Of a stretch of DNA of 64,000 bases, positions 16,426 to 39,253 are shown piece by piece; the first letter of the stretch is position 1, and every line of letters starts with the position of its first letter. This stretch comes from Cryptosporidium bovis (taxonomy: Eukaryota > Apicomplexa > Conoidasida > Eucoccidiorida > Cryptosporidiidae). Both the position numbers and the translations under genes were made by a program. The stretch lies in the NCBI GenBank assembly GCA_009768925.2, contig VHIT02000040.1, forward strand, positions 62,001-126,000. Reading direction: 5' to 3'. The notes below the pieces were generated by a model. That model saw only the letters and a program-made list of their open reading frames with translations, had not been told where the DNA came from and made no database searches.

Positions 16426-17991
16426 TTAATCTCTTCCGAGAAACGATCGCTTTAGGCGAGTTAACCCTGTTTTAAATTTAGATTTACCTGTTTTATTGAT
16501 TTTAAAATCTAAACTTTCTTTTACCATTCTAGACTTAACTGCAGCTTTAGAGGTCCTTGAGGACACTTTTCTAAGTGTAAAAACTTTTTTGCGAATTAAT
16601 TTCCCATCACCATCTTCTTTACCTAAATCAACCGCTTTGTAGTCCTCAATCCAATTTGAAAGGGAAAATTCATCATGGCCTACAACAGAAATGACAGGAA
16701 CTAACCCAAGATAATGTGGATATGTTATTCTATATGGCATTACTGCTTTAGATAGGAGATTTAAATCAATACCACTTGGAACTGTGATTTTCTCATTTAT
16801 AAATCCAAGAGACAACAAACCAACACAAAATTCACTGGCCATGTGAATTTTCATTGCACTTTTGAAAAACGTACTTGAAAATAATAAATATATACATTTT
16901 TGAATTGCAAATTCATTAGCTAAGTCCTTCACACTATTCACTATTTTATATCCCAACTCGACAATATTACTGTCACTGCATTCTGATACAGGACAGTTAA
17001 CAGATATAGCTAAAAGACGTAGTGCCAAGGATGCATTCATCGAACTTATAACCAAATAATTTTTTTCAAGAGAATACATACTCAAACTTCTTTTCTTATT
17101 ATTAAAAATTGAGATTGATAGCAATAGACTATATTTTCCAAACAACTTATGGTCAAACGTCCCGTCCAAGTTTTTTAACGTAAAATATTGTTTATATGTA
17201 TTTTCTATTCTTATAGCTAATGTTTTACTTAATTCCGAGGACTCTGGTGATAAAAACTTCTTACTATCCAAGCACTTGAACATTGAATTGCATATTTCAA
17301 CGTATTTTGACGATATTTTATCATCGTTGAATCTTCTTACTGAAGAAAAACAACGTTCTATTAAAAAACTCCCTGTCTTGTAATCTAAAGTTAATAATGC
17401 AGAACTGAGTATTTCTTGAAGGGTGTAACTCATTGCAATACCATCCAAATATGTAGAAACTGAATAATACAAGCAATATATCAACTCTAAGAACCACATA
17501 TCAGGTATCAAATTAAATTCTATTGCATATGTCATCACCCTTTGAAATGGTTCAAGCGGCAGTGAATTTAGTTCACTTCTAGGTATATTTCTTCTATTCA
17601 GATATATAACATTGTTCCCATTCGATGAATTAATTTTGAGCAGTGGCTTAAACTCGGAATTCGGTATGTGGGTCTTGAGCAAATTTTGACTCTCTTCTGG
17701 TCCAGGATTCTTTTCTGAGATTCCATATTTCACTTCAATGTTGTATTTATGTTGAGTGCACCACCCTTCTGAAAATACACTATAATCAATTAAAGCGTCA
17801 CCTGGGGTCATTCCTGTTATTATTCCTACAAATCCACTTAATTGCCAGTAACCCCAACTCGATTTTTCTGCCACTGGACTCGCATCTTCAACTATCTTAT
17901 CATCTATTACATTCGAGACTGAACTAACAGAAAATTTACATAAAAACAAGAAAAATGTCACTATTATAAACGTTTTTGTGCCTACTTGCAT
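16426..17991 (-). CDS. WYLE-family secreted protein 1 (diverged, W-F-L-E)
   Basis: This 521-aa protein starts with a strong signal peptide (T-F-I-I-V-T-F-F-L-F-L-C ending near residue 24). It belongs to the eight-member paralogous family of this window. The core block at residues 140-250 reads E-P-F-Q-R-V-M-T-Y-A-I-E, then W-F-L-E-L-I-Y-C near 164, S-Y-T-L-Q-E-I and, after a conserved Cys, D-D-K-I-S-S-K-Y-V-E-I-C. The downstream V-G-L-L-S-L-G-F-I-N-E block and a P-Y-R-I-T-Y-P-H-Y-L-G-L-V-P segment are also shared. The C-terminal 60 residues are Lys/Arg/Ser-rich. It differs most within the minus-strand set: the Trp-Tyr of the motif is Trp-Phe, and an extra N-terminal segment with a single Cys replaces that of its sisters. 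Function is unknown; as I recall, the family is restricted to Cryptosporidium. Confidence 0.85.
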   Translation of the reverse strand: MQVGTKTFIIVTFFLFLCKFSVSSVSNVIDDKIVEDASPVAEKSSWGYWQLSGFVGIITGMTPGDALIDYSVFSEGWCTQHKYNIEVKYGISEKNPGPEESQNLLKTHIPNSEFKPLLKINSSNGNNVIYLNRRNIPRSELNSLPLEPFQRVMTYAIEFNLIPDMWFLELIYCLYYSVSTYLDGIAMSYTLQEILSSALLTLDYKTGSFLIERCFSSVRRFNDDKISSKYVEICNSMFKCLDSKKFLSPESSELSKTLAIRIENTYKQYFTLKNLDGTFDHKLFGKYSLLLSISIFNNKKRSLSMYSLEKNYLVISSMNASLALRLLAISVNCPVSECSDSNIVELGYKIVNSVKDLANEFAIQKCIYLLFSSTFFKSAMKIHMASEFCVGLLSLGFINEKITVPSGIDLNLLSKAVMPYRITYPHYLGLVPVISVVGHDEFSLSNWIEDYKAVDLGKEDGDGKLIRKKVFTLRKVSSRTSKAAVKSRMVKESLDFKINKTGKSKFKTGLTRLKRSFLGRD

Positions 17992-19395
17992 AATTGCAGC
18001 TACACAAAATTTTTAATGGTAATAACAATTAATAACTTCAGAAACCTCCCGACTGAAATCGCCATATATACTACTACCAACCGGAGAAATCCTATTTATT
18101 TCCTTTAAAACGCTTTCTTTTAAATAAAAAAGAACCTAGTAACAATGAACCTTGCTTAATATCCAAACCGTATCATGCAAGGATACACTAAAAGCCGAAA
18201 AATCTGTAAATTATAAATTATACCCAAATACCTGGTCTTATCACTAAATAAAATCTATCCACTCTGAAATTTAACTTAATAAACAACCATTCTGAATCAT
18301 TTTTTAAATAATTGTATAAAATCAGTTCGGTACCTAGTAGATTAAAAAAATCCCGCATGTTGGCGCCACATACAAACTCTCGGCGTATATTATGCATGGA
18401 ATCGAATAGCTGAGATGTTTCAAATCGAAAGAACCTGTTTTGTTTCTTACTAAAAAGCAAATGACCTAGTCCTCAATAACGGCAACGAAAGTGTGATATT
18501 TACAAATAATAGTTATTGAGCTACGAATATGCACTAAATATTAATTTTGTGTTTAAACGTTATTTTGTTTCTAAATACCAATATAGCGTTGCTTAAATAA
18601 TCAACATCTATACTAGTTTCTAGATGAAAAAGGAAATGACGCAATTTTTTCAATATTATTTGCCATTACGCTGAACAAAATTACTTCAATATCACTCAAA
18701 CAAGACTGAATATCTCGCTTAAGTTATCAATACGCGCAATCTAAATGATAGATATTATTACTACTAACAAGCACCACACCCTGTTTTCCCAATGTTATGT
18801 TACTTTGTTATTATCTATCTACATTACTACGCACCGTATCTAGAGGATTCCTTTTTTCTTAAGAAAAACAAATAAAAATCTAAAACTAAACATCATATAT
18901 AATGGAATATAAATCTCCGGATAACCGTAATTTTACCGAACTTCATCTGTAAAACAAGATTTAAATCACCGAATTACTTTTCCTATATCTTTGAACAATT
19001 TTTAACTGCTAACCATAAAATTATATAACCCGAGTAAATTCAATTAAAACCTGGATGACAAGAAACTTAGATTGTTTGCCTAAAAAAACAAACATTAAAT
19101 TGTAACTTATAACGGTATTATCCACATCTAAATATATTTATGAACTATAATATACAAGATAATCATTAAAAAAATGACCAAATAATAATTACCATATACA
19201 AACTCAAGTTCTGTCCAAAAATCTTTTCTTTAGTATCGAAATATACAACACTCAAGTGCACAGAAAAACTGTGATAAAGTGAAGGTACTGAATGTATTCT
19301 AGTAATAATCTTTAAATTACTTAAGCTTCATAAGTGTAAAATATTATGGCCACATCAAATATACGTCTAAAATAGAATAAATTTTAATTGTAAGT
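17992..19395. other. spacer between WYLE 1 and WYLE 2
   Basis: This AT-rich spacer has no supportable gene. Upstream of WYLE 1 lie a GGCGAT patch (minus strand, 18058-18064) and a TGGCGCCA palindrome at 18361-18368. An 80-residue frame at 18218-18460 spans the palindrome and has no recognisable features. Confidence 0.5.
18361..18368. promoter_or_regulatory. TGGCGCCA palindrome upstream of WYLE 1
   Basis: A perfect TGGCGCCA lies 370 bp upstream of the WYLE 1 start codon, in otherwise AT-rich DNA. Confidence 0.45.
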
Positions 19396-21042
19396 TTAAC
19401 GGTGTGTTCGTATAAAAACCTTTGTATCGCTCTTGAATTTTGATCTAAGCTGATGTGTGCGTTTAACTTTAATAGAAGTTTTACCAGTCGAAGGTTTAAC
19501 TCCAGTCTTAAATTTATCACGTTTAATTGTTTTTTTCAATTTCTTAGATGTATACACTTTTTGCACATCAAATAGCTTGCTTGGAGCAGCGGGTAACTCT
19601 CCAGACTCTAATATTGCATTTATCCATGATTTATCATATTGAGCCAAAGGTAAATCTTCTAACATATTCGGAATTAAAGACGAATAAGCAGGATCCAGAA
19701 CTCTTCTCGGTGAAACAGCAGTTGCGAATTTTTGAAGGTCATCTCCTATCTGATCAATATCCTCATCAACAAACCCTGCAGAAAATATTTCCTTACAAAA
19801 TATAAGCAATACAACAGTTTTAAACTTTTCATTGTTAACCACAAAGTTTGATAATGTGTATCTGCAATCATCAAAATCTGAAGTGTTTGTTTTAAACAAA
19901 GATTCCAGAATTAGCTCAACGAAAAGGAAAACTATTTCTTTCATTGATTCAAACTTCCATTTAAACTTGTCAGTAATTAAATAAAATGCTAATGCCGAGA
20001 GGGAAATTCTAACAGGTAGATAATTTCTCTCAGGAAAGTACTTTAATTTTTTTCTCTTCATCTTAATAAATGAAATTGAAAGCAGTAGCGAATATCTGTA
20101 AAAGTCACCTGGAGTCAAATGATTATCCTTTGCTTCAAATAAGCCGTAAATATTATTGATTCTTTGTTCAAATTCATTTTTCTGTTCCTTAAAAACGGTT
20201 TCAAAGGATTTCGAATCTAAACAAGACTTAACTCTTTGACATATCTCCACATAGTGAGGTGACAACTGGTCATCTATTATTAATGAAACAGAGTGATAAC
20301 AATTCTCTAAAATAAAAGTTTCATCTTTATATCCCATACTCATCAATGCAGCCCCTACAATGTCCTGCAAAGTGTAACTGAATATAGTACCCGTTAATCT
20401 CGGTACTATTGCAAAATACATACAATGAATAAGTTCCAAGTACCAAATTGATGGAATCAAACAAACGTCAATCGCAAAAGACATTACCCTTTGGTAAGGC
20501 TCATACGTTAGTACACTTAACTTCTTTCTAGAGTGTTTAACTCTTGGAAAATGTGAATACAATAAGCACTCTCGTGTACTCGTATGCTTTAATACCCATA
20601 AAGAATTGAGAAAATTCTTCACTTTTGTTTCTACCGGGGTATGCAACGGCACCCCTATATCATCAAACTTTGGAAATTCCTTACTTTCATCTTTAAGAAT
20701 GTCCACTGAAAGTGAAATCTTTGGTGGTTCTGATCCGATATAAACACTGTTGTAATATTTTTTCAGTATCCGCAAGTCCCCATCATCTAATTTCATAGGA
20801 TAAACCAACTTAATGAATGACAACCACCCAGATTCCCTTCCACTTTTATTATCTAATCCCTGAAAAACAGTATGCCTATCCACGTCTGTCCTACTATGAA
20901 AATTGCAAAGGGCCTTGTTTATCCCTTCATCTGTATACTCTTCATGACCTTCACCTTCCGCAGTATCAGTTCGCAGGGATGATGTGCAGTTCCACAATAT
21001 CAATGTAACAAGTAAAAAAGGCGAAAATTTTACACGTGGCAT
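19396..21042 (-). CDS. WYLE-family secreted protein 2
   Basis: This 548-aa protein uses the ATG at 21042, which directly precedes the signal peptide (F-L-L-V-T-L-I-L-W-N-C); the frame upstream reaches only a TTG. The family core is intact: Y-E-P-Y-Q-R-V-M-S-F-A-I-D-V-C, then W-Y-L-E-L-I-H-C-M-Y near residue 198, then S-Y-T-L-Q-D-I-V-G-A-A. After it come an E-N-C block and D-D-Q-L-S-P-H-Y-V-E-I-C. The C-terminal third carries F-C-K-E-I-F-S-A-G-F-V-D-E and a P-R-R-V-L-D-P segment, then a Lys-rich tail of about 50 residues. Upstream of the core an I-G-V-P-L-H-T-P motif matches the I-P-L-H/F-H-I-P motif of other members. A GGCGGTAA element lies 56 bp upstream of the start. Function is unknown. 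Confidence 0.88.
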   Translation of the reverse strand: MPRVKFSPFLLVTLILWNCTSSLRTDTAEGEGHEEYTDEGINKALCNFHSRTDVDRHTVFQGLDNKSGRESGWLSFIKLVYPMKLDDGDLRILKKYYNSVYIGSEPPKISLSVDILKDESKEFPKFDDIGVPLHTPVETKVKNFLNSLWVLKHTSTRECLLYSHFPRVKHSRKKLSVLTYEPYQRVMSFAIDVCLIPSIWYLELIHCMYFAIVPRLTGTIFSYTLQDIVGAALMSMGYKDETFILENCYHSVSLIIDDQLSPHYVEICQRVKSCLDSKSFETVFKEQKNEFEQRINNIYGLFEAKDNHLTPGDFYRYSLLLSISFIKMKRKKLKYFPERNYLPVRISLSALAFYLITDKFKWKFESMKEIVFLFVELILESLFKTNTSDFDDCRYTLSNFVVNNEKFKTVVLLIFCKEIFSAGFVDEDIDQIGDDLQKFATAVSPRRVLDPAYSSLIPNMLEDLPLAQYDKSWINAILESGELPAAPSKLFDVQKVYTSKKLKKTIKRDKFKTGVKPSTGKTSIKVKRTHQLRSKFKSDTKVFIRTHR

Positions 21043-21736: not shown

Positions 21737-23380
21737 TTAGTTCATTTTCTTATTATCGTTTACCCCTCCTTCTTGCACAGGTTCTGTATTAGGTTGTTCG
21801 GTAGATACAACGGACTCATTGGACTCGACTAATTCACTAAAGTCGTCAACTTTGGGGCGATTAATACTCTCTTTTCTACGTGTTATCCTTGAAAAGAACT
21901 TACCAACAGTCCTGAAAAATGACTTTTTCTTTTTCTTTTTACCCGTAGTCGTCCCACCTTGAGAGTCGAGACCGTATTCCGAACCTTCAACTTGTTTAGA
22001 AACATCTTCTCCAAATTTAGTTTCAGCCTTTAGACTACCGTCTAGATTCCCAAAGTACATCCAAGCGCAATCATACTTTTCAATATTTAGATTTTGCATC
22101 ATCTCTGGAATAACGGAAACATAAGATTCCAACAGAACCCTTTTTGGATTTACCAAATAACCTTCGACTCTATATTTGTGAATTCCTATATCTTCATTTA
22201 TAAATCCAACTGAGAATATCTCTTTGCAAAATATATCCAGTATTTTCGCATCTAAACGTTTGTTGCCAAAATCAGCGACGGACTTTTTACAACTATTAAT
22301 TATCGTAGCTGTGTCCTTGAACATCAGACTTGTGAACATTTTTGTGAAGAAATCAACAACTTTGCTCTCTGACTCGAGCAGAAGATTAAGTTCCTTTGCC
22401 AAAGCATAGTAACTCAAAGAAGCTGTCATAATTCTAATAACCAAAAAATTTATTTCTGGATACTCTTTGTTAAGTTTAAACTTAGAAAAAAGCAAGTGTA
22501 TTGAATACAATATGGAATACCTGGCAAATAAAGTAGGTTTCAGTAGTTTGCCAAAATTCGGAACACTTGCATACACATTCTTAATTCTATAACTAAATTC
22601 CTGTTCTAGTTCAGAAAAATCACCCAAAGTAAACTCCTCCGAGTCCAAACACTTTTTCATATTATGGCATATATCAGCCATGTTAGATGAAATGGCATCG
22701 TCCTTTACATAAGATACGCTCTCCATACAGTTATTCAAATTGAACTTTTCATTCCTGTATTCCATTGACATAATTGCAGATCCGACAATATCTTGCAAGC
22801 TATAACTCATCAACATTCCATTTAAATACGGTATTGTACTCACAAACATACAGTGAATCAATTCTAAATACCACATAGAGGGTACCATGCACACTTCTAT
22901 GGCAAAGGTCATAAGCCTTTGATAGGGTTCAGTAGTTATAATTGGCAGGTCTTTTCTATAACTTTTTACTCTTGGAAAGAAAAATTTCTTTCCAGCATCT
23001 ATAGAGTCTTCTTTAGTGGAAGACTTTTCAAAATCATAGTACGATAATGAAACACTTTTACTTGGAATATGGCAAATATCCTTATATTTATCCATTTCTA
23101 TATTAGGTTTCAGTGTTCCATAACTGGAAACATCCTTGCATAGTGATGTATCAAGTTCAGTCTTGTCTAAGTAAGAAAAAAAAGTAATATTAGACTCTAA
23201 AGAACCAATAGGCTCTTTTCCTTCATTGTTAATCAATTCAAAAAGCCTCTTTAAGCTACTTTCCCTATTGTAGCTTGTTCCTGAAGCATCGTACGTTGCT
23301 CGCTCACTCCCAAACACAAAAGTACCCCAAATCAGAATTAGAACCAAAACCAAACAATATTCAGTAATCCGAGGCCTCAT
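21737..23380 (-). CDS. WYLE-family secreted protein 3
   Basis: This 547-aa protein starts at the ATG at 23380, giving the signal peptide E-Y-C-L-V-L-V-L-I-L-I-W-G-T-F. The frame upstream reaches only a TTG. The family core shows E-P-Y-Q-R-L-M-T-F-A-I-E-V-C, W-Y-L-E-L-I-H-C-M-F near residue 169, S-Y-S-L-Q-D-I-V-G-S-A-I-M-S and D-D-A-I-S-S-N-M-A-D-I-C. F-C-K-E-I-F-S-V-G-F-I-N-E is conserved near residue 395. The tail differs from its sisters: a K-K-K-K-K-K-S-F-F-R patch is followed by about 50 acidic and polar residues. After the signal peptide an S-S-L-K-R-L-F-E-L-I motif resembles one in WYLE 6. Function is unknown. Confidence 0.88.
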   Translation of the reverse strand: MRPRITEYCLVLVLILIWGTFVFGSERATYDASGTSYNRESSLKRLFELINNEGKEPIGSLESNITFFSYLDKTELDTSLCKDVSSYGTLKPNIEMDKYKDICHIPSKSVSLSYYDFEKSSTKEDSIDAGKKFFFPRVKSYRKDLPIITTEPYQRLMTFAIEVCMVPSMWYLELIHCMFVSTIPYLNGMLMSYSLQDIVGSAIMSMEYRNEKFNLNNCMESVSYVKDDAISSNMADICHNMKKCLDSEEFTLGDFSELEQEFSYRIKNVYASVPNFGKLLKPTLFARYSILYSIHLLFSKFKLNKEYPEINFLVIRIMTASLSYYALAKELNLLLESESKVVDFFTKMFTSLMFKDTATIINSCKKSVADFGNKRLDAKILDIFCKEIFSVGFINEDIGIHKYRVEGYLVNPKRVLLESYVSVIPEMMQNLNIEKYDCAWMYFGNLDGSLKAETKFGEDVSKQVEGSEYGLDSQGGTTTGKKKKKKSFFRTVGKFFSRITRRKESINRPKVDDFSELVESNESVVSTEQPNTEPVQEGGVNDNKKMN

Positions 23381-23464
23381 TATCAATAAACATTAGCATT
23401 TCTATCTCCAAAGCTCAAATAAATTCATGTATTTCATGCCAAGCTATATTAGTCAAGACTCAAA

Positions 23465-23475
23465 GGCGGTTCGCG
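23465..23475 (+). promoter_or_regulatory. GGCGGTTCGCG element upstream of WYLE 3
   Basis: A G+C-rich island in AT-rich DNA 85 bp upstream of the WYLE 3 start contains the GGCGGT core followed by CGCGCGC. Confidence 0.4.
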
Positions 23476-24539: not shown

Positions 24540-24547
24540 TGGCGCCA
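24540..24547. promoter_or_regulatory. orphan TGGCGCCA palindrome
   Basis: This perfect copy of the palindrome is more than 1.1 kb from the nearest start codon I can support. It could mark the promoter of an unrecognised noncoding transcript. Confidence 0.3.
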
Positions 24548-26181: not shown

Positions 26182-27822
26182 TTATTCATCCATTTCCGCT
26201 TCTTTTATTGATAATCCCTTTGTGAATATTCTCGGAAGTAACACTTTGTTGATCGCCTTAATGGCCCTGGCTGTAGCTCTCCTACGGGTTGTTCGTTTGA
26301 AAACAAGCTTACTACTAACAAATCTCGAATCCCTCATACCTTTCTTTTTAGTTTTAGAAAGAAGCTTTGACTTGTAAAATTTGCCAGTTGCTGGACGAGA
26401 GAGGGGAGCCTCTGTTATTTCAAGTTCATCCGCAGTAAATTCTAACCATTCCTTACCAAAACTTTCAAGACTTTCATCCGAAGGCATACTTGGAATGACC
26501 TCGGCATAATTTTTCCTGAGAATACGACTCGGTTGAATAGCCTGAATAAATTTATCCTCATCATCACCCATGATATTAAAACTCTCATCAATAAATCCAA
26601 CAGAAATAAAATCTTTGCAAAGAAATTCAAACAACAGTTCCTTTTCTTCAGAATCAATTTTAATATTTGAATTCAAAAATTTGTTGCAAGATTTAAAATA
26701 TTTGTTTACAGATATAAAGGTTGCAAAAGAAATTATATGATAAAGCTTATTAAATTGTCTAACATTAGCAAAATGTGAATCAAATCGCTTATAAATATTG
26801 ATAATAGAAACCATCGAAACCATTGTCCTTACAGGCAGAAAATTTCTGACATTATGATCTTTGCTATACCCATTTGAATTTGGAGAAGTAGAAATGCCGA
26901 GTCTTAAGAAATAAGAAGCTATATTGTTTAATTGTGTTCCGCCAACTCCTACTGATTTATATATATTGTTTATTCTGGTAACAAATTCATCTTTGAATCT
27001 TGCATACTTGCCATTTTCAAAAACTCTTGATTCCAGACATGTTTTCATTTTACCACAAATATATTCATAATTTGGAGAAATACTATCATCCGAAACCATC
27101 GAAACTGACCTGTGACAATTCTCTATCGAAAAGTTTGAGTCCAAGTAACCAATTGTCATAACTGCAGAGCCAACAACATCTTGTAAACTGTAGCTCATAA
27201 GCATTCCTTTAAAAAATGGTGCCATTCCCACGTACATACAATGGATAAGTTCGAGATACCATAGCTTAGGTATCATGCAGACTTCAATAGCAAATGTCAT
27301 CAGTCTTTGATAAGGTTCAGGCGTAAGCACAGGCAATTTGTTTCTAAAATGCTTAATTCTTGGAAAAAACAGTTCTGTATCCTCTTGTTCCTCCTGTTCC
27401 TCTTGCTTGCTTGGTCCTACAAAAGTAACATCAAGGCTCTTCGCCATACTCTCCAGATTATAAGATAACTTCTTGAAACCCTTCAGAGACTTTTGTTCTG
27501 AGGGAATGTGAAATTTAGCATTCTCTAAATTCAAACCAGAATATTTTTCTTCATCGTAAACGGTGTCGCCGTGAATAGCGATTTGTGGATCCATAATGCT
27601 TCTGTATTCGCCATAAAAACATGAGGAGAACGATTCCACTATGCTAGAATACCAATCATCACCGTAACCTCCATTTTCTATGAGAGTTTTGACATATACT
27701 GAGGACCTCCATGGAGCGCAAAATCGATTTTGAGACTTTTTTTCAATATTTATGGATGTGAACAAAAGTGGCGTAAAAATACAAAAAAGCAACAAAAAAC
27801 AAAATATCACATTGATAACCAT
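26182..27822 (-). CDS. WYLE-family secreted protein 4
   Basis: This 546-aa protein has a signal peptide from the ATG at 27822 (I-F-C-F-L-L-L-F-C-I-F). After a variable N-terminal region with an A-P-W-R-S-S motif, an F-H-I-P-S-E motif leads to the core: L-P-V-L-T-P-E-P-Y-Q-R-L-M-T-F, W-Y-L-E-L-I-H-C-M-Y-V-G near residue 187, S-Y-S-L-Q-D-V-V-G-S-A and D-D-S-I-S-P-N-Y-E-Y-I-C. The C-terminal block L-C-K-D-F-I-S-V-G-F-I-D-E and the following 80 residues are almost identical to WYLE 5. The tail is Lys/Arg-rich. Nucleotide identity to WYLE 5 is about 98% in two blocks and clearly lower between them. A GGCGGCAAA element lies 125 bp upstream. Confidence 0.9.
   Translation of the reverse strand: MVINVIFCFLLLFCIFTPLLFTSINIEKKSQNRFCAPWRSSVYVKTLIENGGYGDDWYSSIVESFSSCFYGEYRSIMDPQIAIHGDTVYDEEKYSGLNLENAKFHIPSEQKSLKGFKKLSYNLESMAKSLDVTFVGPSKQEEQEEQEDTELFFPRIKHFRNKLPVLTPEPYQRLMTFAIEVCMIPKLWYLELIHCMYVGMAPFFKGMLMSYSLQDVVGSAVMTIGYLDSNFSIENCHRSVSMVSDDSISPNYEYICGKMKTCLESRVFENGKYARFKDEFVTRINNIYKSVGVGGTQLNNIASYFLRLGISTSPNSNGYSKDHNVRNFLPVRTMVSMVSIINIYKRFDSHFANVRQFNKLYHIISFATFISVNKYFKSCNKFLNSNIKIDSEEKELLFEFLCKDFISVGFIDESFNIMGDDEDKFIQAIQPSRILRKNYAEVIPSMPSDESLESFGKEWLEFTADELEITEAPLSRPATGKFYKSKLLSKTKKKGMRDSRFVSSKLVFKRTTRRRATARAIKAINKVLLPRIFTKGLSIKEAEMDE
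26333..26636 (-). repeat. near-identical paralogue block (partner 28604-28907)
   Basis: About 304 bp at the 3' part of WYLE 4 match the same part of WYLE 5 with only a few substitutions by eye, for example the A/G in GCCAGTTG versus GCCGGTTG. Identity stops abruptly on both sides. Confidence 0.85.
26995..27368 (-). repeat. near-identical paralogue block (partner 29270-29643)
   Basis: About 374 bp spanning the W-Y-L-E core of WYLE 4 match WYLE 5 with a handful of mostly synonymous changes. The segment between this and the 3' block is much less alike, so the identity is patchy rather than uniform. Confidence 0.85.
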
Positions 27823-28464: not shown

Positions 28465-30069
28465 CTATTCTTGATCTATCAAGAATGCATTTGAATATAG
28501 TTTTGGAAGAGTTAACCTTCTAAGTTTGTTAACTATCCTTTTGGTCGCTCCCAAATGAGCTCCTTTAGCAGTATGTTCACTAGATTTTACAGTTCTTGGA
28601 TCTCTCATACCTTTCTTTTTAGTTTTAGAAAGAAGCTTTGACTTGTAAAATTTGCCGGTTGCTGGACGAGAGAGGGGAGCCTCTGTTATTTCAAGTTCAT
28701 CCGCAGTAAATTCTAACCATTCCTTACCAAAACTTTCAAGACTTTCATCCGAAGGCATACTTGGAATGACCTCGGCATAATTTTTCCTGAGAATACGACT
28801 CGGTTGAATAGCCTGAATAAATTTATCCTCATCATCACCCATGATATTAAAACTCTCATCAATAAATCCAACAGAAACAAAATCTTTGCAAAGAAATTCA
28901 AACAACAATTTTTTGTCCACAAAGTTAATTTTAATATTTGTTTCCAGAAATCTTTTACAGAAAACAAAGTATTTTTCTATTGAAATCATTGTTCCATAGG
29001 AAATCAAATAATAAAATGCATTAAACTGCTGGACAATACTTGTAATTAGTGTACTAAATTTTCTTGTCATGTTTATAGTGGAAATCAATGAAACCATTGT
29101 CCTTACAGGCAAAAAGTTTCTGGCATTATGATCTTTTTCAAACCCATTTGAATATGGTGAAGTAGAGATACCGAGTTTTAAGTAATAAGAAGCTAATTCG
29201 TGTTTGTCAATGTTATCATCGTTAGTAAGCTTATAACTTTCCTCTATTCTTTTTTTGAACTCTTCCCTAAATCTTGCATACTCGCCATTTTCAAAAACTC
29301 TTGATTCCAGACATGTTTTCATTTTATCACAAATATATTCATAATTTGGAGAAATACTATCATCCGAAACCATCGAAACTGACCTGTGACAATTCTCTAT
29401 TGAAAACTTTGAATCCAAGTAACCAATTGTCATAATTGCAGAGCCAACAACATCTTGTAAACTGTAGCTCATAAGCATTCCTTTAAAAAATGGTGCCATT
29501 CCCACGTACATACAATGGATAAGTTCGAGATACCATAGCTTAGGTATCATGCAGACTTCAATAGCAAATGTCATCAGTCTTTGATAAGGTTCAGGCGTAA
29601 GTACAGGCAATTTGTTTCTAAAATGCTTAATTCTTGGAAAAAATAGGTTATGCTCAGGATCTGCTGGTCGTCTAATTTCCCTAAAAAGTACATCAGGGTT
29701 CTTAACCAAATTACCAAATTCCATACTTAACTTTTTAAACTTCTTTAATGATCTGCGCTCAGAAGGAATGTGAAAGAAATTGCTACTCTCCAGTTTTCCT
29801 GGAATGGAGCCAATATCAACGACAATATCATTGTGAATAGCGGATTTTGGATTGCAAACTGATGCATACTCCCCTCTAAATTTTTCAATAAACGAATAAA
29901 TTAAATCCGACCGTTTGGATAGAAGTTGTAAGTTTCTAATTTCCTTAGAAGTTCTCCAAGGAGGGGAGAAGCGATTTTCAAGCTTTTGTTCATCAGTACC
30001 AATACAAACATTTAAAGAAATACATAGCGTGAAATACACGTAAACTAGAAGCAATAATATATTGTTCAT
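28465..30069 (-). CDS. WYLE-family secreted protein 5
   Basis: This 534-aa protein is the closest paralogue of WYLE 4. The signal peptide follows the ATG at 30069 (I-L-L-L-L-V-Y-V-Y-F-T-L-C). An S-P-P-W-R-T-S motif and F-H-I-P-S-E-R precede the core: L-P-V-L-T-P-E-P-Y-Q-R-L, W-Y-L-E-L-I-H-C-M-Y-V-G near residue 178, S-Y-S-L-Q-D-V-V-G-S-A and D-D-S-I-S-P-N-Y-E-Y-I-C. The L-C-K-D-F-V-S-V-G-F-I-D-E block is present. The last 40 residues differ from WYLE 4 and are basic. A GGCGGTAAAA element lies 84 bp upstream. Function is unknown; secretion followed by host or vacuole targeting is inference from the family. Confidence 0.9.
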   Translation of the reverse strand: MNNILLLLVYVYFTLCISLNVCIGTDEQKLENRFSPPWRTSKEIRNLQLLSKRSDLIYSFIEKFRGEYASVCNPKSAIHNDIVVDIGSIPGKLESSNFFHIPSERRSLKKFKKLSMEFGNLVKNPDVLFREIRRPADPEHNLFFPRIKHFRNKLPVLTPEPYQRLMTFAIEVCMIPKLWYLELIHCMYVGMAPFFKGMLMSYSLQDVVGSAIMTIGYLDSKFSIENCHRSVSMVSDDSISPNYEYICDKMKTCLESRVFENGEYARFREEFKKRIEESYKLTNDDNIDKHELASYYLKLGISTSPYSNGFEKDHNARNFLPVRTMVSLISTINMTRKFSTLITSIVQQFNAFYYLISYGTMISIEKYFVFCKRFLETNIKINFVDKKLLFEFLCKDFVSVGFIDESFNIMGDDEDKFIQAIQPSRILRKNYAEVIPSMPSDESLESFGKEWLEFTADELEITEAPLSRPATGKFYKSKLLSKTKKKGMRDPRTVKSSEHTAKGAHLGATKRIVNKLRRLTLPKLYSNAFLIDQE

Positions 30070-31309: not shown

Positions 31310-32938
31310 TCAATCATTTTGAAATATGCCATTTTTTATTTCATTCGCATCACTTTTACCTTTATTTGTAAGTAATTTAGTAATTCTAGTTCTTATTTTT
31401 GTTTTTCTTGATTTTTTTGACTTTGAGCCATAAACCATGCCTGACACAGAAATACCTTGAGTTTTAACCTTTCTTCTCGTTTTTTTTAGAGCTTTGGATT
31501 TATAAACAGTTTTTTTACCATTTCTTAATTCAGGCTTAGCCCTACTTTGGGTCAAAGCATCATCTAATGGTATATAAGTTAGCCATTCTTGGCCATAATC
31601 TGCAAGATTCATTTCCTCTGCCATTTCTGGAATTACAAGATAGTAATTTGGATCCAAAATGCGTCTAGGAACAGTAACAGCAGCAAACGACTCTTTATTT
31701 TCTGACAGGACTTCAACTCGATTGTCGACGAATCCAATTGATAGAAACTCTTTACATAAAAGTTCGTAAAGAATCTCAGATGAATATGTTTCTTTCTTTA
31801 AATAAGACTTGAGAAATGATTTACAGTACTTCATATATATCTTAATATCAAATAGTATTTTTGCTGAAAATATATCAAAAAAAGCAGTTATAAGTGTTTT
31901 TAGTGAATTATCAAGATTCGGAAATAAAATAAAGTGTATTATTGATACAACAGTTGAAGCAATCATAATTCTAATGGGCAAAAAGTTTCTTTCTGGGTGA
32001 TTTATTGTTGGAAAAAAATCACTAGATTCGAAAAGGAGAGCGGCTCTGATAAAACACCTTGAAACTCCAATTGTTGAATTTTTACTTTCAACATCATACG
32101 TGTGTAAATTTTTAATCCTCGATGCAAATTCATCCCTGAGTTTTGAGTATTTTTCTTGCTGAAAATCCCTAGAAAGTAAACAATTCATCATACTTTCACA
32201 AACGTCTCTGTAATATGGTGAAATTTTATCATCTGAAAACAATGATACTGACAGATAGCAATTCTCTATTGAGAATGTTTCGTCCAAATATCCCATCGTT
32301 TTAATTGCCGAACCAACGACATCTTGTAATGAATAACTAGAAAGCATTCCATCAAAGTAGGGAGCCACTCCAATATACATACAATGAATCAATTCAAGAT
32401 ACCACATTGAAGGAATTAAACAAATATCAATTGCGAACGTCATTAGTCTTTGGTAAGGTTCTGATGTTAATTTAGGTAGATTTTTTCTAAAATGTTTCAT
32501 TCTAGGAAAAAATATCTCGTTATTAGTTAGTGCACTATCCATTCCTCTTATCTTTCTTACGAGTGGTGATTCACTGGAACTCAGTGTATTAGATTTCATA
32601 TACCTCAACGAGGAAAATTTGCTATATTTTCTTCTCTCTAAAGGAATATGAAATGGAAAATCGGGTTCGACATGTGTAATATGTTTATCCTCGGATAAAT
32701 CCGCATGAATATCCTGAACCGGCTCTGATATTGAAAAATATTCATTTTCATATCTTGCCTTTAATTCGCTTACCATATGTTCAAAACCGTGCTTATATTC
32801 ATCTAAGATTAACTGATAAAACCTCTTCAACGGACAGGTCCTCCCGGAAAAATCAACTTCACCGGAACACAAGCATGTCAGTAAAGTGGCAAAACATATT
32901 GAAATTAGTATAATTATCCTAAAAGCTACTATTTTCAT
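31310..32938 (-). CDS. WYLE-family secreted protein 6
   Basis: This 542-aa protein is called from the ATG at 32938, which places a compact signal peptide (V-A-F-R-I-I-I-L-I-S-I-C) at the N-terminus. An in-frame ATG at 32968 adds ten residues and is the alternative. A C-P-L-K-R-F-Y-Q-L-I motif follows the signal, like that of WYLE 3. The core has L-P-K-L-T-S-E-P-Y-Q-R-L-M-T-F, W-Y-L-E-L-I-H-C-M-Y-I-G near residue 177, S-Y-S-L-Q-D-V-V-G-S-A and D-D-K-I-S-P-Y-Y-R-D-V-C. Then come L-C-K-E-F-L-S-I-G-F-V-D-N and P-R-R-I-L-D-P-N-Y. The C-terminal 75 residues are strongly Lys/Arg-rich. A GGCGGT element lies 63 bp upstream. Confidence 0.88.
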   Translation of the reverse strand: MKIVAFRIIILISICFATLLTCLCSGEVDFSGRTCPLKRFYQLILDEYKHGFEHMVSELKARYENEYFSISEPVQDIHADLSEDKHITHVEPDFPFHIPLERRKYSKFSSLRYMKSNTLSSSESPLVRKIRGMDSALTNNEIFFPRMKHFRKNLPKLTSEPYQRLMTFAIDICLIPSMWYLELIHCMYIGVAPYFDGMLSSYSLQDVVGSAIKTMGYLDETFSIENCYLSVSLFSDDKISPYYRDVCESMMNCLLSRDFQQEKYSKLRDEFASRIKNLHTYDVESKNSTIGVSRCFIRAALLFESSDFFPTINHPERNFLPIRIMIASTVVSIIHFILFPNLDNSLKTLITAFFDIFSAKILFDIKIYMKYCKSFLKSYLKKETYSSEILYELLCKEFLSIGFVDNRVEVLSENKESFAAVTVPRRILDPNYYLVIPEMAEEMNLADYGQEWLTYIPLDDALTQSRAKPELRNGKKTVYKSKALKKTRRKVKTQGISVSGMVYGSKSKKSRKTKIRTRITKLLTNKGKSDANEIKNGIFQND

Positions 32939-34063
32939 CTTAAGGCTGTTTAAGACAATTATTTGCATAAAACTGACCAAAGTTATCAGTTTTTTGAAAA
33001 GGCGGTCATTTTCAAAAAACCCAACAAGTAACTCACTTTTTTACATTTTATGCATCTATTTTCCGATGAATGCAAAAAAATGCAAATACAAAACTAGTAC
33101 TTACAAATTTTTGAGCAAAAGCGCTTCTTTACTTGAATACACAACCCTTGATTTTAACTTTCGTCTGTAGTATTTTCCAACAGATTAATTATTAGCATTT
33201 CCATTAAATATTTTGCATCTATATCCCTTCTATATTTGCATGAAGTATGATTATTTTTTTACAGTAACTAACACTTTTGCTTGTTTTCTCAGTTTTGAGA
33301 TTATTATGCATACACATACTGTTTATCTAAAAACCCAAGTTCAAATCTTTCAATGAGCAGCATTATTGCTGATACAGCCAGAAATAGTTTAATTAGTGAT
33401 TTTTTGTTGAAAACTAAAAGATTCAAATCTAACAACCTCACTTTGATGGGTGATTGAGGCCAGTCGCATTACAAGTTAATGTTAGTTCAAAATGTAGCCG
33501 TTATTGTGAAAATAGCAACAGTTCGCCGTGAATGTGGAGATGTATCAAGGGTAATCAGAGTTATGTACCTAATTCTCTTAAATTAATATTTATACTCTGA
33601 ATTTCCACAATAGTCGTGGTTTGTATCAGTATCAAATATCAAGAAAATAAACGTGGCAGGCAAAAGAATGAAACAAAAAGAGTAAATTGAAGTAAAGTAA
33701 AACTTAGTATTTTAAGAACAATCACCTATACACAAAGGAATTATTATTTACGCATCTTTTCCTTTTTGCTTTTTTTGATTTGATGCTTCAACTCGATCAT
33801 AGTATCATTAAGTGAAAAATAGTTTGTTGCATGCATAAGGCGCCAAAGATAGGTACTTTTAAATAATAGTCTTGATTGCGACTATAAGATAAAGAAGTGT
33901 GTAATCTGAAATAATAGAAAAATAGATTTAACTATCTGCTTTTTTATATACTGATTACCATTGTTCGGTGGAACGTTATCTGTGGAGATGGAACGGCAAT
34001 TTTCAACTATCAGAAAAGGCTATGAATTTTAACATTTCTATTGTCATTTAAAATAGATATTCA
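32939..34063. other. divergent promoter region, WYLE 6 / WYLE 7
   Basis: This is the only divergent spacer within the WYLE cluster. It holds GGCGGT at 33001-33006 close to WYLE 6, and GCATGCA at 33829-33835 next to GGCGCC at 33840-33845, 219 bp before WYLE 7. I see no coding sequence. Confidence 0.5.
33829..33845 (+). promoter_or_regulatory. GCATGCA plus GGCGCC composite upstream of WYLE 7
   Basis: GCATGCATAAGGCGCC puts an ApiAP2-type palindrome four bases from an E2F-like core, 219 bp upstream of the WYLE 7 start. A similar pair lies at 9409-9432. Confidence 0.45.
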
Positions 34064-35980
34064 ATGAATGTTCAAAAACAAAAAACGATTGCATTGATTT
34101 CAATAATAATAGTAATAGTGTCCTTCCTATCAGACATTTTTCCGCCATATAAAGTAAGTGCAAAATCAGTAGATTTTGAGGATCAAGCAGAGAAAAATAG
34201 AAGGAGTAGGACTCTAAAGAGAATATTTACGAGAAGCAAGACATACAAAATAGTTAATAAAGATGGTTCTATGGTATATCCTCCCTTAGACTTAATAACT
34301 AGCAGAAACAGTCCCGTATTAAAGAGTGTGAATGAATTAGATTCAACAAGAGATAGAGGTGAGTTTACGCGTTACCAATATAATAACATAAATTAATATA
34401 TGAACGCCTTATTTTTTTAATACAATAAATTAAGATATACTCGATAGAGGTGATGTTTATATCATCAAAAATGGTGAAATACCTGGATGGGACGGAGTTG
34501 GAATACCAATACATCACCCCAAGGGAGAAGACTATCTTAGGTTGGATCCTCCATCTGAGAAAAAGGTGATATCTATCCTCCCACCGGTCTCCATTGAGAG
34601 GTTAGTTTACCATAACAGTTAATCCGAGTAAAATATGTTCAACTACATGTTTCCGACCTTAGATTTATTTTATTTGCACTTGAAGAGTGCCTTATACCTT
34701 CAACGTTTTATTTAAAAGTGGCATTCTGTACCTTTGATGCCTTTTATCCTTCACTAGAAGGAGTGCCATCCGGACAAGTGATGCAGGATATAGTTGGGGT
34801 GTCACTTTATTCTGTGAGAAAATTTAAGAATGAATTATCTTTTAATACATGGTATTGTTCAACTGGGATAAGCATGCTTACAGATCCAAGAATGAGTTCA
34901 AATTCATATTCAAAATGTCACAATATCTCACTTTGTTTACACCAGAATTTATTCCCAGTTCTATCTCCCCCACTGGGTAATCTTAGGCCTGATGAATTAA
35001 TAGAAAAGTCGTATGGTTTGCACGGCTTAAATTACCAAGCAATGCAAAGAATGGATATAGAAAAGATACTTTATAGAATAATCAAAAAAGTGCAAGCAAA
35101 TTTGTGTCTTGAACCCAATAAAACATCAAGCAAACTTTTTTCGATAGTTAGAGCCTTCATACTGACTTTATATTCAATACATTCAAGTATGATAATTCCA
35201 GGCTGGTATATATCCAAATTTCCTTCCTCTAAAAAGGCCTTATCTTTCGTTAGCATTGTAAATAGGGAGGAAACGGAACAATCAAAATTCAGATCACGTT
35301 GCTCCAAAAAGTTCAGAAGATGGTTAAGGATCAATCAGCCAAAGCATTCACCGTTAATTGGTAATATTAATGTCATTAAAGAGGTATCCGAATCAGTTTG
35401 TTTTCAAGCAGCTAGAGCTGGTTTTGTAAGCAATGAGGAATTTGACTTTTCAAATATGGTTAAGGAAGGGACGGTAAATGTTGATTTAATAAATTTACAA
35501 CTTCCTATTGTTATACTCAGGGGTGAAAGGCAGCTAAATTACTTCAGGAACTATAACCTAAGGAAAGTTTCTGGTGAAAATAGATGGTCACATTACCACG
35601 AAACATATTATCCCATGTCAAGTATGCCAAGTAGTGGAAACATTGACCTTTCTAGTGGTGATATTGAAAGTAATGCGGAAAAAAACGCTAGAATGTTATT
35701 AAGCGGTGTTAGAATCAATGATCCTGAAGTTGAGGAGGTTGAAAAACTAATAAAAGAAAAAAAATTAAAAAAAAACAAATGTACTAGAACACCACCTGAT
35801 TCTCCTGAATCTAGCATGCATGACGGTTTAGACGAATATTATCCGAAAAAACACAAGCGTAAAAGTGATCATGAGGAAGAAGAGGACAAGGAAGAAGACA
35901 AAGTGGAGGAAGAAGAGGAGGAAGAAGAGGAGGAAGAAGAGGAGGAAGAAGAGGAGGAAGAACAAGAAGAGGAAGAATGA
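34064..35980 (+). CDS. diverged, spliced WYLE-family protein 7 (F-Y-L-K)
   Basis: I read this as one three-exon gene. Exon 1 is 34064-34358 (signal anchor I-A-L-I-S-I-I-I-V-I-V-S; donor GTGAGT); exon 2 starts at 34435. For the second junction, the model without any frameshift uses 34435-34566 and 34620-35980 (595 aa). An alternative uses donor GTTAGT at 34602 and acceptor at 34662. It gives a better family match (P-P-V-S-I-E-R-F) but needs one base less in the A6 run at 34560-34565. Both models then read I-L-F-A-L-E-E-C-L-I-P and F-Y-L-K-V-A-F-C where sisters have W-Y-L-E-L-I-H-C, then M-Q-D-I-V-G-V and A-R-A-G-F-V-S-N-E. I-G-I-P-I-H-H-P in exon 2 matches the family I-P-L-H motif. The tail is about 40 acidic residues, unlike the basic tails of its sisters. 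It is the only plus-strand member. Confidence 0.72.
35919..35978 (+). repeat. GAG/GAA repeat coding poly-Glu tail
   Basis: A purine-only GAGGAAGAA repeat encodes the Glu tract that ends WYLE 7. It is prone to slippage, so the tail length may vary. Confidence 0.8.
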
Positions 35981-36213
35981 GAATGTTAAAAGATGTCGAA
36001 ATTAGCAGGATAAATTTACTGCGAATAACTACCCCACTAATCAACTAATGATGACTTTTTGAAAAATTAACATTTATAGAAATATAGTTATAATTATCTC
36101 CCACATATTTAACATATATAAAGTTATATTTTATATTAATTTAGAAGTGTAAATACCTATCTTTTTTCCTGTAACAAGTTTATGTCAAATTTCCTCAAAC
36201 AATGTTATTATTT

Positions 36214-37218
36214 TTAATTTCTATTGAACCCTCCCATGTTTCCCAGAATGCCATTTCTCATCATGTTGTTCAAGTTGTTATTAATACCTAGAATGTTGTT
36301 TAAGTTATTGTTGTAATTGTTATTATTATTATTGTTATTGTTGAATATATTATTGCCATTATTCATATTCGAAAAAAGATTGTAATAATTCGCGCCGTAC
36401 AATCCATAATCTTCAAATCCTCTCGCATAAATTGCATTCATAGGTTGTATTCTCGCTCCAATTGGAATGGGTGAGAAATAGGATAGAACAACAGATTGAA
36501 CGACTGAAAGACAACAACCACAAACAGCTACTGATATTTGAACGCAAGCTACCCATTTTACCGTAGACTTTACTTTATCAAAGAATCCTTGATTCCTCTT
36601 TTTTCTAAGTTTCTCTTGTTTCTTCCTTATTCTTTTTCTTCTTTTCTTTCTCCTCTTTCTCTCTTTTTTGGATAAATATTCGTCATCATCTTCTTCATCA
36701 ATATATCTTCTTCTTGGATTCCTTCTTCTGTGATTTATTTCATTATAATTTAATTTGTGAAAATTTGCCAAGAATCTTAACTCTGTTTTGTTATTGCTAT
36801 TGTCTACTGAAAATAAGTTCTGCTTCTCGTCAAATTTAAATAATTTATCCATTAATATATCACTTGTGATATTTGTTGAATTATTTGTCATTTCAATTAT
36901 CCTATTGATCATATAATTGGTATCATTACCTAGCATATAGCATGTATGAGTGTTATTTACGTATTTTAACAAACTATTATCATTTTTGCACTGATTGGTA
37001 TGCTTTTCTGCAAGTGTTTTATTTGTATAAAACTGGTAAACATTATTGTTCCCCTCTTTTGAAACAATGATATTTGTTACATTTGCATGACTTAAAACAT
37101 CCTTTATTATTTGATCCTCCAGCGACTCTGGTTTTAAAAACTCTACATCTTCACAATAACAAGTAGTAATTACAAGACAAATCAAAGTTGTAGCTATTAA
37201 TCTAAAAGTTATGGTCAT
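36214..37218 (-). CDS. secreted Asn-rich protein with basic cluster, unknown function
   Basis: This 334-aa protein has a clear signal peptide (L-I-A-T-T-L-I-C-L-V-I-T-T-C). Residues 25-165 hold many N-x-S/T sequons. Residues 165-215 form a dense Arg/Lys cluster split by an acidic D-E-E-D-D-D-E patch, with several dibasic sites that could be processed. A hydrophobic, Cys-rich segment at about 226-255 (V-A-V-C-G-C-C-L-S-V-V) could be a membrane span. The last 60 residues are an Asn-rich tract with poly-Asn runs. It does not carry the WYLE motif and I do not recognise a family. Its place between WYLE 7 and WYLE 8 suggests co-expression with them, which is inference. Confidence 0.8.
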   Translation of the reverse strand: MTITFRLIATTLICLVITTCYCEDVEFLKPESLEDQIIKDVLSHANVTNIIVSKEGNNNVYQFYTNKTLAEKHTNQCKNDNSLLKYVNNTHTCYMLGNDTNYMINRIIEMTNNSTNITSDILMDKLFKFDEKQNLFSVDNSNNKTELRFLANFHKLNYNEINHRRRNPRRRYIDEEDDDEYLSKKERKRRKKRRKRIRKKQEKLRKKRNQGFFDKVKSTVKWVACVQISVAVCGCCLSVVQSVVLSYFSPIPIGARIQPMNAIYARGFEDYGLYGANYYNLFSNMNNGNNIFNNNNNNNNNYNNNLNNILGINNNLNNMMRNGILGNMGGFNRN

Positions 37219-37513
37219 CCCATCAATAAATATTTTACTCTTCCTAATTTATTGTTTTATACCACTAATATTACTAACTTCACTTGTAGTTCCTCAAATA
37301 TTTTTATATGCAAAATAATGGTATGTCAAGTAAGTAATGCAAATAAAATGAAGATTTAACAGTGTGTGAAAAAAAAGGTAAATAATACCAAAGACTATTA
37401 ATAAAATAATTAGGAATAACAGCTTTGTTATTGAGAAATCAAAATATAGATTATGATAATATTCGAGTCACAAAAGTTAAAATACAGTTAAGTGTAATAC
37501 ACATTGTTATATT

Positions 37514-37793
37514 TTAATCAATATTAATTTCCGAGAGAATCTCTTCAATTTCAGATCCTATGTCTTTAGGAGTCAGGGGTTTTCTTCCAAGTTCACCAGA
37601 TGAAGAAATGTCCACGGAACCTCTTGATTTCCTATTATATTGCTTGCTTTCATGAGTTACTTTATCCATTCCTTCTCCTGGAGATTGCTTTTCACCAGAT
37701 GTGGGGGGTATAGAGGTAACAGACTTTGTGCTAGTAGTGGTTACTGGTTTCTTGGTTGGAGCCTTAGTGCTTAGTTTAGTTACTTTAACAGTG

Positions 37794-37854
<61 letters not shown>

Positions 37855-39253
37855 AGGAAGAGGAGGTAGGAGAACTTTTATCCGGTTTTTTGTCACCACC
37901 ACTCTTCACAGTACTACTACTATGTGATTTCTTTACACGAGAAGTGTCTACATTTGAAGTAAAGTGTGCTAGGTGTGGGAATGCCAAATACTTAAGCTCA
38001 TCAATGGACATGTTTTTCGGAATAGTTACGTCGCTATTAATAAATCCAATAGAGACAAATTCAGTACAGGCGTGTTGAATAATAATATTTGAAAACGGAC
38101 TCCATGTAGCTTTACGAACATATGGAAGATAGTCTACTGAATTGTATTTCATATGAGCATTTATAAGTAAACTTGAACATTTTGCAATCATTTTGATAGG
38201 TGTTGATTGCTTTAGTGCGCCATCACAAATATTCAAGTAGTCTTTTGGTGAAATCTCAAAGGCGTCTACATCTTTATATCCACTATTAATCAAAAATTCA
38301 GTTAACATCATGATAAAGTTGAAACAACGAATAACATAAAATAATTTATCAGGTATATTACGTGCACCTGCTTTAACAATATAAAATAACTTATCAGGTA
38401 TATGTGTACTTTCATCAGCCTCGGAAGATTTATATTTAGCTGACTTTTCTCTTCTAGCCATAATTAATCCGTTAATTATCTTTTGAGCATAAGAACGTGG
38501 CTGTTGGCCTCTGAAGAATGGTGGCATTTCCTTGTAGATACTTGCAATTTGTTTTTCCCACCTCTTTGCCATTTGTTTTCCTTTGTCGGACATAAATTCC
38601 TTCGAAGACAAACATGATGCCATTATATTACACACATCTTTTGAATTCGGACTTATTGCTATATCACTAAACGTTTTAACTGCAGTTACACATCTGGAAA
38701 TACTGAATCCCTCACTCGGCAATTCCATCGAGCTAAGTGCTGCTCCAACTATGTCCTGCAACGTATAACTCGTAAGAATTCCTGTTGTATATTTAGTTAC
38801 TCCTTTGTGCATACAAAAAGTCAATTCCAAGTACCATAACGAGGGCAAATTGCAGATGTTAACTCCAAATGAAAGTATTCTCTCAGTGTATTCCAGTGGT
38901 AGTCTCATTGGATGAGTAGTGACCACAGGTATTCTTCGAAGTTTTATGTTCTCGTCTAACGCCATTATTGGGACATGCAAACTTATAGGTAAATCTGAAT
39001 AGCGATTTTTAGAGCCAACCTGTGTACCATCTGCATTTATATCATATGGAAAGTTAGGTTCTATGCCCTTAATCACAACAGTTCTAAATGTTGGGTCCAA
39101 CTTTCTGACTCTTATTCTATACTGTGAATTATATAGAGGTGGTTTATCGTTTGAAGCTCGGACTCCAAAGCCTGGAGTTCCAACTGAACCATTGCCAAAA
39201 AATACCTGTATTACTGCAAAAATGATAAAAAATAAAACCTGCTTCAATATCAT
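37514..39253 (-). CDS. WYLE-family secreted protein 8 with poly-Thr domain
   Basis: This 579-aa protein starts with a signal peptide (V-L-F-F-I-I-F-A-V-I-Q-V-F-F-G). It carries the family core: P-L-E-Y-T-E-R-I-L-S-F, then W-Y-L-E-L-T-F-C-M near residue 138, S-Y-T-L-Q-D-I-V-G-A-A, a conserved Cys in I-S-R-C, and I-S-P-N-S-K-D-V-C. E-F-V-S-I-G-F-I-N-S is the second family block. Two things set it apart. A 45-bp tandem duplication doubles an I-P-D-K-L-F-Y segment (about residues 278-305). The usual basic tail is replaced by a run of more than twenty Thr within a Ser/Thr/Pro/Lys-rich region, a probable O-glycosylated stalk like that of the mucin-like gene. GGCGGTAAA and TGGCGCCA lie 305-335 bp upstream. 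Confidence 0.88.
37791..37854 (-). repeat. (TAG/ACT)n microsatellite coding poly-Thr
   Basis: An almost pure trinucleotide run, about 20 units, encodes the poly-Thr stretch of WYLE 8. Uninterrupted ACT codons indicate recent slippage and a probable length polymorphism. Confidence 0.9.
38330..38420 (-). repeat. 45-bp in-frame tandem duplication in WYLE 8
   Basis: The bases around TTATCAGGTATA occur twice at a 45-bp period (about 38346 and 38391). They encode two copies of I-P-D-K-L-F-Y followed by similar residues. No other family member shows the duplication. Confidence 0.8.

What the first reader, a model, noticed from the sequence alone, without database searches (positions are those of the whole stretch)
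16426..39253. Eight-member tandem cluster of WYLE-type secreted proteins
Eight genes share a signal peptide, an I-P-L-H/F-H-I-P motif, a core E-P-Y-Q-R-(x)-M-(x)-F-A-I followed by W-Y-L-E-L-(I/T)-(H/F)-C-M, S-Y-(S/T)-L-Q-D-(I/V)-V-G, D-D-x-I-S-P-x-Y-x-x-(I/V)-C and a distal C-K-(E/D)-x-x-S-x-G-F-(I/V)-(D/N). Conserved cysteines suggest a folded, disulfide-bonded domain. I recall the family name WYLE from Cryptosporidium genome annotation but know of no assigned function, so this is the best candidate in the window for an uncharacterised system: a secreted effector or vacuole-remodelling family. Tails differ (basic in most, acidic in copy 7, poly-Thr in copy 8), which suggests different destinations on a common fold.
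Basis: partly seen in the sequence, partly recalled or inferred. Interest (0 to 1): 0.78.

Follow-up and report, generated by a model that had tools for sequence, protein, structure and literature searches.

The report
WYLE secreted protein cluster, Cryptosporidium bovis
Eight neighbouring genes of the cattle gut parasite Cryptosporidium bovis encode a known but unexplained family of secreted proteins, and two of the genes appear to keep copying just two stretches of their core from each other while their remaining parts drift apart.

Summary
The eight genes are real and belong to the WYLE family, a name already in public Cryptosporidium records. The assembly is C. bovis. Seven copies are single-exon; copy 7, on the opposite strand, reads best as a three-exon gene with an acidic tail. 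Every named relative found is Cryptosporidium. A ninth, dispersed member has a C. serpentis ortholog (60% identity over the core). Tail charge is conserved by ortholog group. AlphaFold gives a confident all-helical core (pLDDT 88, pTM 0.90) with six near-invariant cysteines and no credible match among solved structures. The strongest new result is a mosaic: copies 4 and 5 share two tracts (669 of 678 nt identical) but are 55% identical elsewhere. The same two blocks are near-identical between the paired copies of C. xiaoi and of C. ryanae, which fits recurrent gene conversion. One C. parvum member tagged by others stayed with the parasite or vacuole. Best reading: secreted parasite or vacuole scaffold proteins with a constant core and diversified outer parts; the molecular job is inferred. 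The family is known; the mosaic, fold model, tail groups and copy 7 gene model are additions.

The parts
16426..17991 (-). WYLE copy 1 (W1), 521 aa, basic tail; on a long branch; lacks the C171 column
19396..21042 (-). WYLE copy 2 (W2), 548 aa, basic tail; groups with the chipmunk ELE39_000105 type
21737..23380 (-). WYLE copy 3 (W3), 547 aa, mixed tail (net +2)
26182..27822 (-). WYLE copy 4 (W4), 546 aa, mosaic with copy 5
28465..30069 (-). WYLE copy 5 (W5), 534 aa, mosaic with copy 4
26996..27369 (-). near-identical tract 1 of copy 4 (residues 152-276; 374 nt, 7 mismatches to copy 5)
26333..26636 (-). near-identical tract 2 of copy 4 (residues 396-497; 304 nt, 2 mismatches to copy 5)
29270..29643 (-). 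near-identical tract 1 of copy 5
28604..28907 (-). near-identical tract 2 of copy 5
31310..32968 (-). WYLE copy 6 (W6), 552 aa, basic tail; the modelled sequence
34064..34358 (+). copy 7, proposed exon 1 (signal-peptide-like start); donor GTGAGT at 34359
34435..34600 (+). copy 7, proposed exon 2 (IPIHHP motif); donor GTTAGT at 34601
34663..35980 (+). copy 7, proposed exon 3 (core and acidic poly-Glu tail)
37514..39253 (-). WYLE copy 8 (W8), 579 aa, poly-Thr tail

Best explanation
The cluster is the C. bovis set of WYLE proteins, a family found only in Cryptosporidium. Shown here: each copy has a signal-peptide-like N-terminus (copy 7 in a proposed exon 1), a conserved core with six near-invariant cysteines modelled as all-helical, and a tail whose charge is conserved by ortholog group. 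Shown here: two blocks of copies 4 and 5 are near-identical down to silent sites while the N-terminal, middle and tail parts have separate histories, and the same two blocks are near-identical within the matching pairs of C. xiaoi and C. ryanae; gene conversion limited to these blocks is the simplest cause. Inferred: the proteins enter the secretory pathway, fold with about three disulfides and stay on the parasite or in the vacuole or interface, not in the host cytosol. The homogenised core does one shared job, such as docking onto a common partner or self-assembly; the diversified N-terminal and middle parts face variable partners; the basic tails (tandem copies) and acidic tails (copy 7 and the ninth gene) hold members at a polyanionic site or pair them with each other.
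For: Family: 36 hits: 3 own, 5 unnamed, 28 named, all 28 Cryptosporidium; 13 hits, 11 named, all Cryptosporidium. Fold. Cysteines. Tails: 36 of 37 tandem-type rows net +11 to +22; 4 of 4 copy-7-type rows -20 to -29; 9 of 9 ninth-gene orthologs -11 to -16 over the last 46 residues. Mosaic: (tracts 669 of 678 nt identical, third positions 220 of 225; outside 502 of 906 and 141 of 303; 2000 codon-column shuffles reach at most 64 against 283 and 278). (within-pair identity, core and C block: C. bovis 97 and 99%, C. xiaoi 97 and 95%, C. ryanae 100 and 92%; N block 38, 38, 28%). (tract tree: R12+R13 99/99, W4+W5 93/97; tree of the other parts: W4+X4 100/100, W5+X5 100/99). Location: tagged C. parvum WYLE4 coincided with parasite and/or vacuole (PMC8687662 section 5).
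Against: No function, partner or assembly was shown. The only localisation is one C. parvum member by immunofluorescence. An amphipathic membrane-binding helix is not general: 3 of 14 tails tested beat shuffles at 5%. Near-identical blocks are seen in one gene pair of one lineage; the 22 within-species pairs of chipmunk genotype, C. meleagridis, C. canis, C. felis and C. ubiquitum reach at most 63% (core) and 38% (C block). The two C. xiaoi copies do not group together in the tract trees (X5 with W4+W5 at 64/74). The C. ryanae copies move between flanking trees: R13 joins W4+X4 in the N tree (81/92), but both join W5+X5 in the middle+tail tree (84/87, 85/91); combined support is 57/21 and 70/62.
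Confidence: 0.4

Rival explanations
1. Surface adhesins or receptor ligands: the variable N-terminal and middle parts bind host molecules that differ between hosts, and the core is only a scaffold.
For: The N block is generally the least conserved part between paralogs (9-40% against 40-99% in the core, 50 within-species pairs), and in the copy 4/5 pair it escapes homogenisation. W8 has a poly-Thr, mucin-like tail. 4 of the 7 single-exon copies hold one hydrophobic 19-residue stretch beyond residue 45 (W1, W2, W6, W8), though in W6 it coincides with a helix of the modelled domain.
Against: No binding data. GPI signals were not tested. The tagged member is reported with parasite and/or vacuole without a surface assignment.
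Confidence: 0.22
2. Exported host-cell effectors, like MEDLE2: the basic tail acts as a targeting or nucleic-acid-binding signal inside the enterocyte.
For: Signal-peptide-like starts, a multigene cluster and very basic tails; MEDLE proteins, another secreted multigene family, are exported.
Against: WYLE4 (cgd8_3560) is listed 'Not in host cell' in the study that found MEDLE2 exported. Only one member was tested.
Confidence: 0.15
3. Lipid or small-molecule carriers: a secreted, disulfide-bonded helical bundle with a hydrophobic pocket.
For: All-helical core with near-invariant cysteines. Weak fold rows include carriers (vitamin D-binding protein) and isoprenoid synthases.
Confidence: 0.12
4. 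Enzymes of an unrecognised kind.
For: Q203 and D234 are invariant in 43 rows and R144, R162, E180, D204, R321 nearly so, so a polar site is not excluded.
Against: No Pfam family above its cut-off in the eight copies. Over 50 aligned members, no family was matched by more than 3 at E 0.1 (best DUF7783, 3 members, 0.0013; cut-offs not shown there). No credible fold match to an enzyme.
Confidence: 0.08
5. The copy 4/5 mosaic is an assembly artefact or plain purifying selection, not gene conversion.
For: This assembly is unfinished (43 contigs), and tracts of 374 and 304 nt exceed a typical short read (recalled). The C. xiaoi copies do not pair in the tract trees. For the other species only proteins were seen.
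Against: The same two blocks are near-identical within pairs in records of three species. In the two blocks 7 sites read W4=W5 against X4=X5 and 0 follow position, and 32 sites separate C. bovis + C. xiaoi from C. ryanae; in the other blocks 78 sites follow position and 0 do the opposite, with 5 separating C. ryanae. Third positions are 220 of 225 identical in the tracts, 141 of 303 outside. W6, which shows no such tracts, has 59% C-block identity to its C. ryanae counterpart.
Confidence: 0.07

Closest known systems
WYLE family of Cryptosporidium (C. parvum cgd8_3540, cgd8_3560; C. felis and C. hominis records named WYLE)
   Same: Homologous over the core, signal-peptide-like start, WYLE motif
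   Different: This is the C. bovis set. W4-W6 form a group with C. xiaoi and C. ryanae copies only. The 4/5 mosaic was not seen in the listings and passages found
MEDLE family of Cryptosporidium
   Same: Secreted, multigene family
   Different: MEDLE2 is exported to the host cytosol, the tagged WYLE is not; no sequence comparison with MEDLE was made here
Isoprenoid synthase fold (trichodiene synthase, prenyl synthases)
   Same: Recurrent weak all-helical rows

Membership tests
WYLE family | Sequence homology to public proteins named WYLE | tested here: met
   P0022 and P0031 (C. felis, named WYLE) E 6.8e-91 and 9e-87 to a profile of the eight cores; P0043 and P0046 named WYLE
WYLE family | W-Y-L-E motif | tested here: met
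   WYLEL in W2-W6 and W8, WFLEL in W1; copy 7 reads FYLKV but aligns through the core
WYLE family | N-terminal signal peptide | tested here: met
   hydrophobic N-terminus in the seven single-exon copies and in copy 7's proposed exon 1; hydropathy only, no dedicated predictor
WYLE family | Restricted to Cryptosporidium | tested here: met
   28 of 28 named hits, 11 of 11 named hits; word-based searches of limited reach
MEDLE-type exported effectors | Export into the host cell | not testable with these tools
   paper only: one C. parvum WYLE 'Not in host cell'
Isoprenoid synthase fold | Structural match well above background | tested here: inconclusive
Isoprenoid synthase fold | Two conserved aspartate-rich motifs (recalled) | tested here: not met
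   one invariant Asp and one near-invariant Asp in 43 rows, 30 residues apart
Any Pfam family | Score above curated cut-off | tested here: not met
   eight window copies, copy 7 as its exon 3 frame; one search adds E-values for 50 members but no cut-offs beyond the first

The most novel reading that the evidence does not exclude
WYLE proteins form a new helical fold and a two-sided assembly: an old acidic-tailed member (the ninth gene, with copy 7) pairs by charge with the expanded basic-tailed tandem copies at the parasite-host interface, and gene conversion preserves the shared assembly surface of the core while the outward parts diversify by host.
Probability: 0.15. Interest if true: 0.75.

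Novelty: new member of a known kind. Interest (0 to 1): 0.48.

Why it matters
WYLE is a named, Cryptosporidium-only secreted family of a major gut parasite without a known function. A confident core model, a list of near-invariant residues, tail classes fixed by ortholog group and a better model for copy 7 make it testable. The copy 4/5 mosaic shows which parts the parasite keeps identical and which it lets drift, which points to a constant binding surface.

Tried and rejected
Full-length alignment A1 as search query: 2 hits only, apparently because low-complexity tails drew the candidates; replaced by core alignments. One search missed most tandem members known, so its list is incomplete.

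Amphipathic membrane helix in the tails: 3 of 14 tested (W3, P0012, P0020) beat shuffles at 5%; dropped as a general mechanism.

A first tract scan with a mild mismatch penalty merged both tracts into one of 1037 nt with 134 mismatches; it was repeated with a stronger penalty, chosen. Near-identical blocks in other species: not seen in 22 within-species pairs.

For the tree, five proteins (P0001, P0003, P0006, P0007, P0039) were dropped; each is identical to, or contained in, a window copy or the ninth member.

Kazal inhibitor near the cluster (cgd8_3550 is called Kazal-like in PMC4637869): no Kazal hit in the 18 window proteins scanned, of 22 ORFs of 150 aa or more; four were not scanned. Unresolved.

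cgd8_3520, rank 4 in a table of C. parvum transcript counts from three mice (PMC8852703), was considered as a WYLE. By gene order (PITH gene 9769-10296 as possible counterpart of cgd8_3510) it more likely matches 11358-14825. This is inference.

Papers: PMC8687662 passages and the whole of section 5; PMC10629705, PMC8852703, PMC4637869, PMC8552020, PMC12782386, PMC13419397, PMC13241007, PMC6532270 and PMC3542205 passages only. Other papers were seen only as search listings. The library lacks most subscription journals.

Full report
What is there. The window is contig C4, 62001-126000, of a 9.06 Mb assembly in 43 contigs. The organism is Cryptosporidium bovis: the ninth family member on contig C15 is identical to P0039, FG379_001473 [Cryptosporidium bovis], and the contig length agrees (256683). 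The eight members sit at the stated coordinates, and their kinship is beyond chance.

Copy 7. It lies on the + strand, and the ATG-to-stop ORF (34781-35980) misses its front. Three open stretches in different frames fit together by phase at GTGAGT..AG (34359-34434) and GTTAGT..AG (34601-34662). Exon 1 carries a signal-peptide-like start, exon 2 an IPIHHP motif, and exon 3 resumes the core where the family alignment expects it. Public orthologs P0036 (chipmunk genotype), P0037 (C. parvum) and P0038 (C. ryanae) start at or within the equivalent of exon 3, so they are probably truncated annotations. Against this: no RNA evidence, no tblastn hit for exons 1 and 2, and a genome match from 34508 that reads through four stops. 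A damaged front is therefore not excluded.

Family and range. One search gave 2 hits. One search gave 36: 3 from this genome, 5 unnamed and 28 named, all Cryptosporidium. One search gave 13, 11 named, again all Cryptosporidium, including C. serpentis (60% identity to the core of the ninth member), recalled to be a gastric species. In a quick tree of 51 rows the ninth-gene orthologs form one group (9 rows, 100*) and copy-7 orthologs another (4 rows, 100*); W8, W3 and W1 have long branches and unsure places. Locus-tag order in C. ryanae (2210 = copy 7, 2211 = W6, 2212 and 2213 = the W5/W4 type) and in chipmunk genotype (109 = copy 7, 108, 106, 105, 104) runs parallel to the window. This is read from tags, not from DNA; whether W4-W6 correspond to the chipmunk 108 type is inference.

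Structure. A model of W6 with 41 sequences has mean pLDDT 80.3 and pTM 0.83. The core alone, with 50 sequences, has pLDDT 88.2 and pTM 0.90 and is almost all helical. Cysteine columns C184, C225, C245, C251 and C393 are invariant in the rows that cover them; C370 is in 42 of 43, and W8, the exception there, has it in the eight-copy alignment. C171 is present in 39 of 42, missing in W1, its C. xiaoi ortholog and the ninth protein. No solved structure matched credibly, nor did the viral library for the full model. Weak or missing matches do not prove a new fold.

Tails. From one alignment column on, 36 of 37 tandem-type rows have net charge +11 to +22 (W3 is +2), 4 of 4 copy-7-type rows -20 to -29, and W8 +3. 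The last 46 residues of the ninth-gene orthologs are -11 to -16 in 9 of 9; 7 of 9 end in YIE, C. serpentis in FIE and C. felis in neither.

The mosaic. Copies 4 and 5 are near-identical in two tracts, residues 152-276 and 396-497 of copy 4: 669 of 678 nt, and 220 of 225 third positions. Outside they match at 502 of 906 nt and 141 of 303 third positions. No shuffle of 2000 scored above 64, against 283 and 278. The paired copies of C. xiaoi and of C. ryanae show the same pattern at protein level. Sites conflict as gene conversion predicts: in the N, middle and tail blocks 78 sites follow position and 0 the opposite; in the two conserved blocks 0 follow position and 7 the opposite. Trees agree in part. 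Tracts group R12+R13 (99/99) and W4+W5 (93/97), but X4 and X5 do not pair; the other parts group W4+X4 (100/100) and W5+X5 (100/99), while the place of the C. ryanae copies differs between blocks. So repeated conversion, at least in the C. ryanae and the C. bovis/C. xiaoi lines, is the simplest reading. It was not seen in the 22 within-species pairs of five other species. In the listings and passages I saw no report of it.

How it probably works. Secretion and a stable cysteine-bearing core are well supported by sequence and model. Location in or on the parasite or vacuole rests on one tagged C. parvum member. A shared docking or assembly role for the core, variable partner-facing parts, and charge-based retention or pairing are inferences. 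Rivals are adhesin, exported effector, carrier and enzyme.

Verdict. The family is known by name; this is its C. bovis set. The mosaic, the predicted fold without solved relatives, the tail classes, the reach to C. serpentis and the copy 7 gene model are what the work adds.

Noticed in passing
window 11358-14825 (-): 1155-aa protein with a signal-peptide-like start, a cysteine-rich part, long Thr-rich repeats and PESGK repeats, mucin-like; by gene order possibly the counterpart of cgd8_3520.
   Followed up: partly
window 36214-37218 (-): 334-aa protein with a signal-peptide-like start, a basic stretch, a hydrophobic segment and an Asn-rich end between WYLE copies 7 and 8; no Pfam match above cut-off.
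   Followed up: partly
L016 1015-2544 (G000:C15): Ninth, dispersed WYLE member with an acidic tail and a conserved YIE-like C-terminus; 8 further orthologs including C. serpentis.
   Followed up: yes
window 23381-26181: 2.8-kb gap between copies 3 and 4 with no open stretch above 93 aa; chipmunk genotype has a locus tag (107) in the corresponding order that the search did not return.
   Followed up: partly
window 47309-51493 (+): 1394-aa protein with a sterol-sensing domain.
   Followed up: no
window 9769-10296 (+): PITH-domain protein; cgd8_3510 is described as a thioredoxin-like fragment, a possible synteny anchor.
   Followed up: partly
PMC8687662: The paper gives WYLE4 as cgd8_3560 in four places but lists the WYLE4-HA line as cgd8_3570 modified in one resource row.
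   Followed up: no
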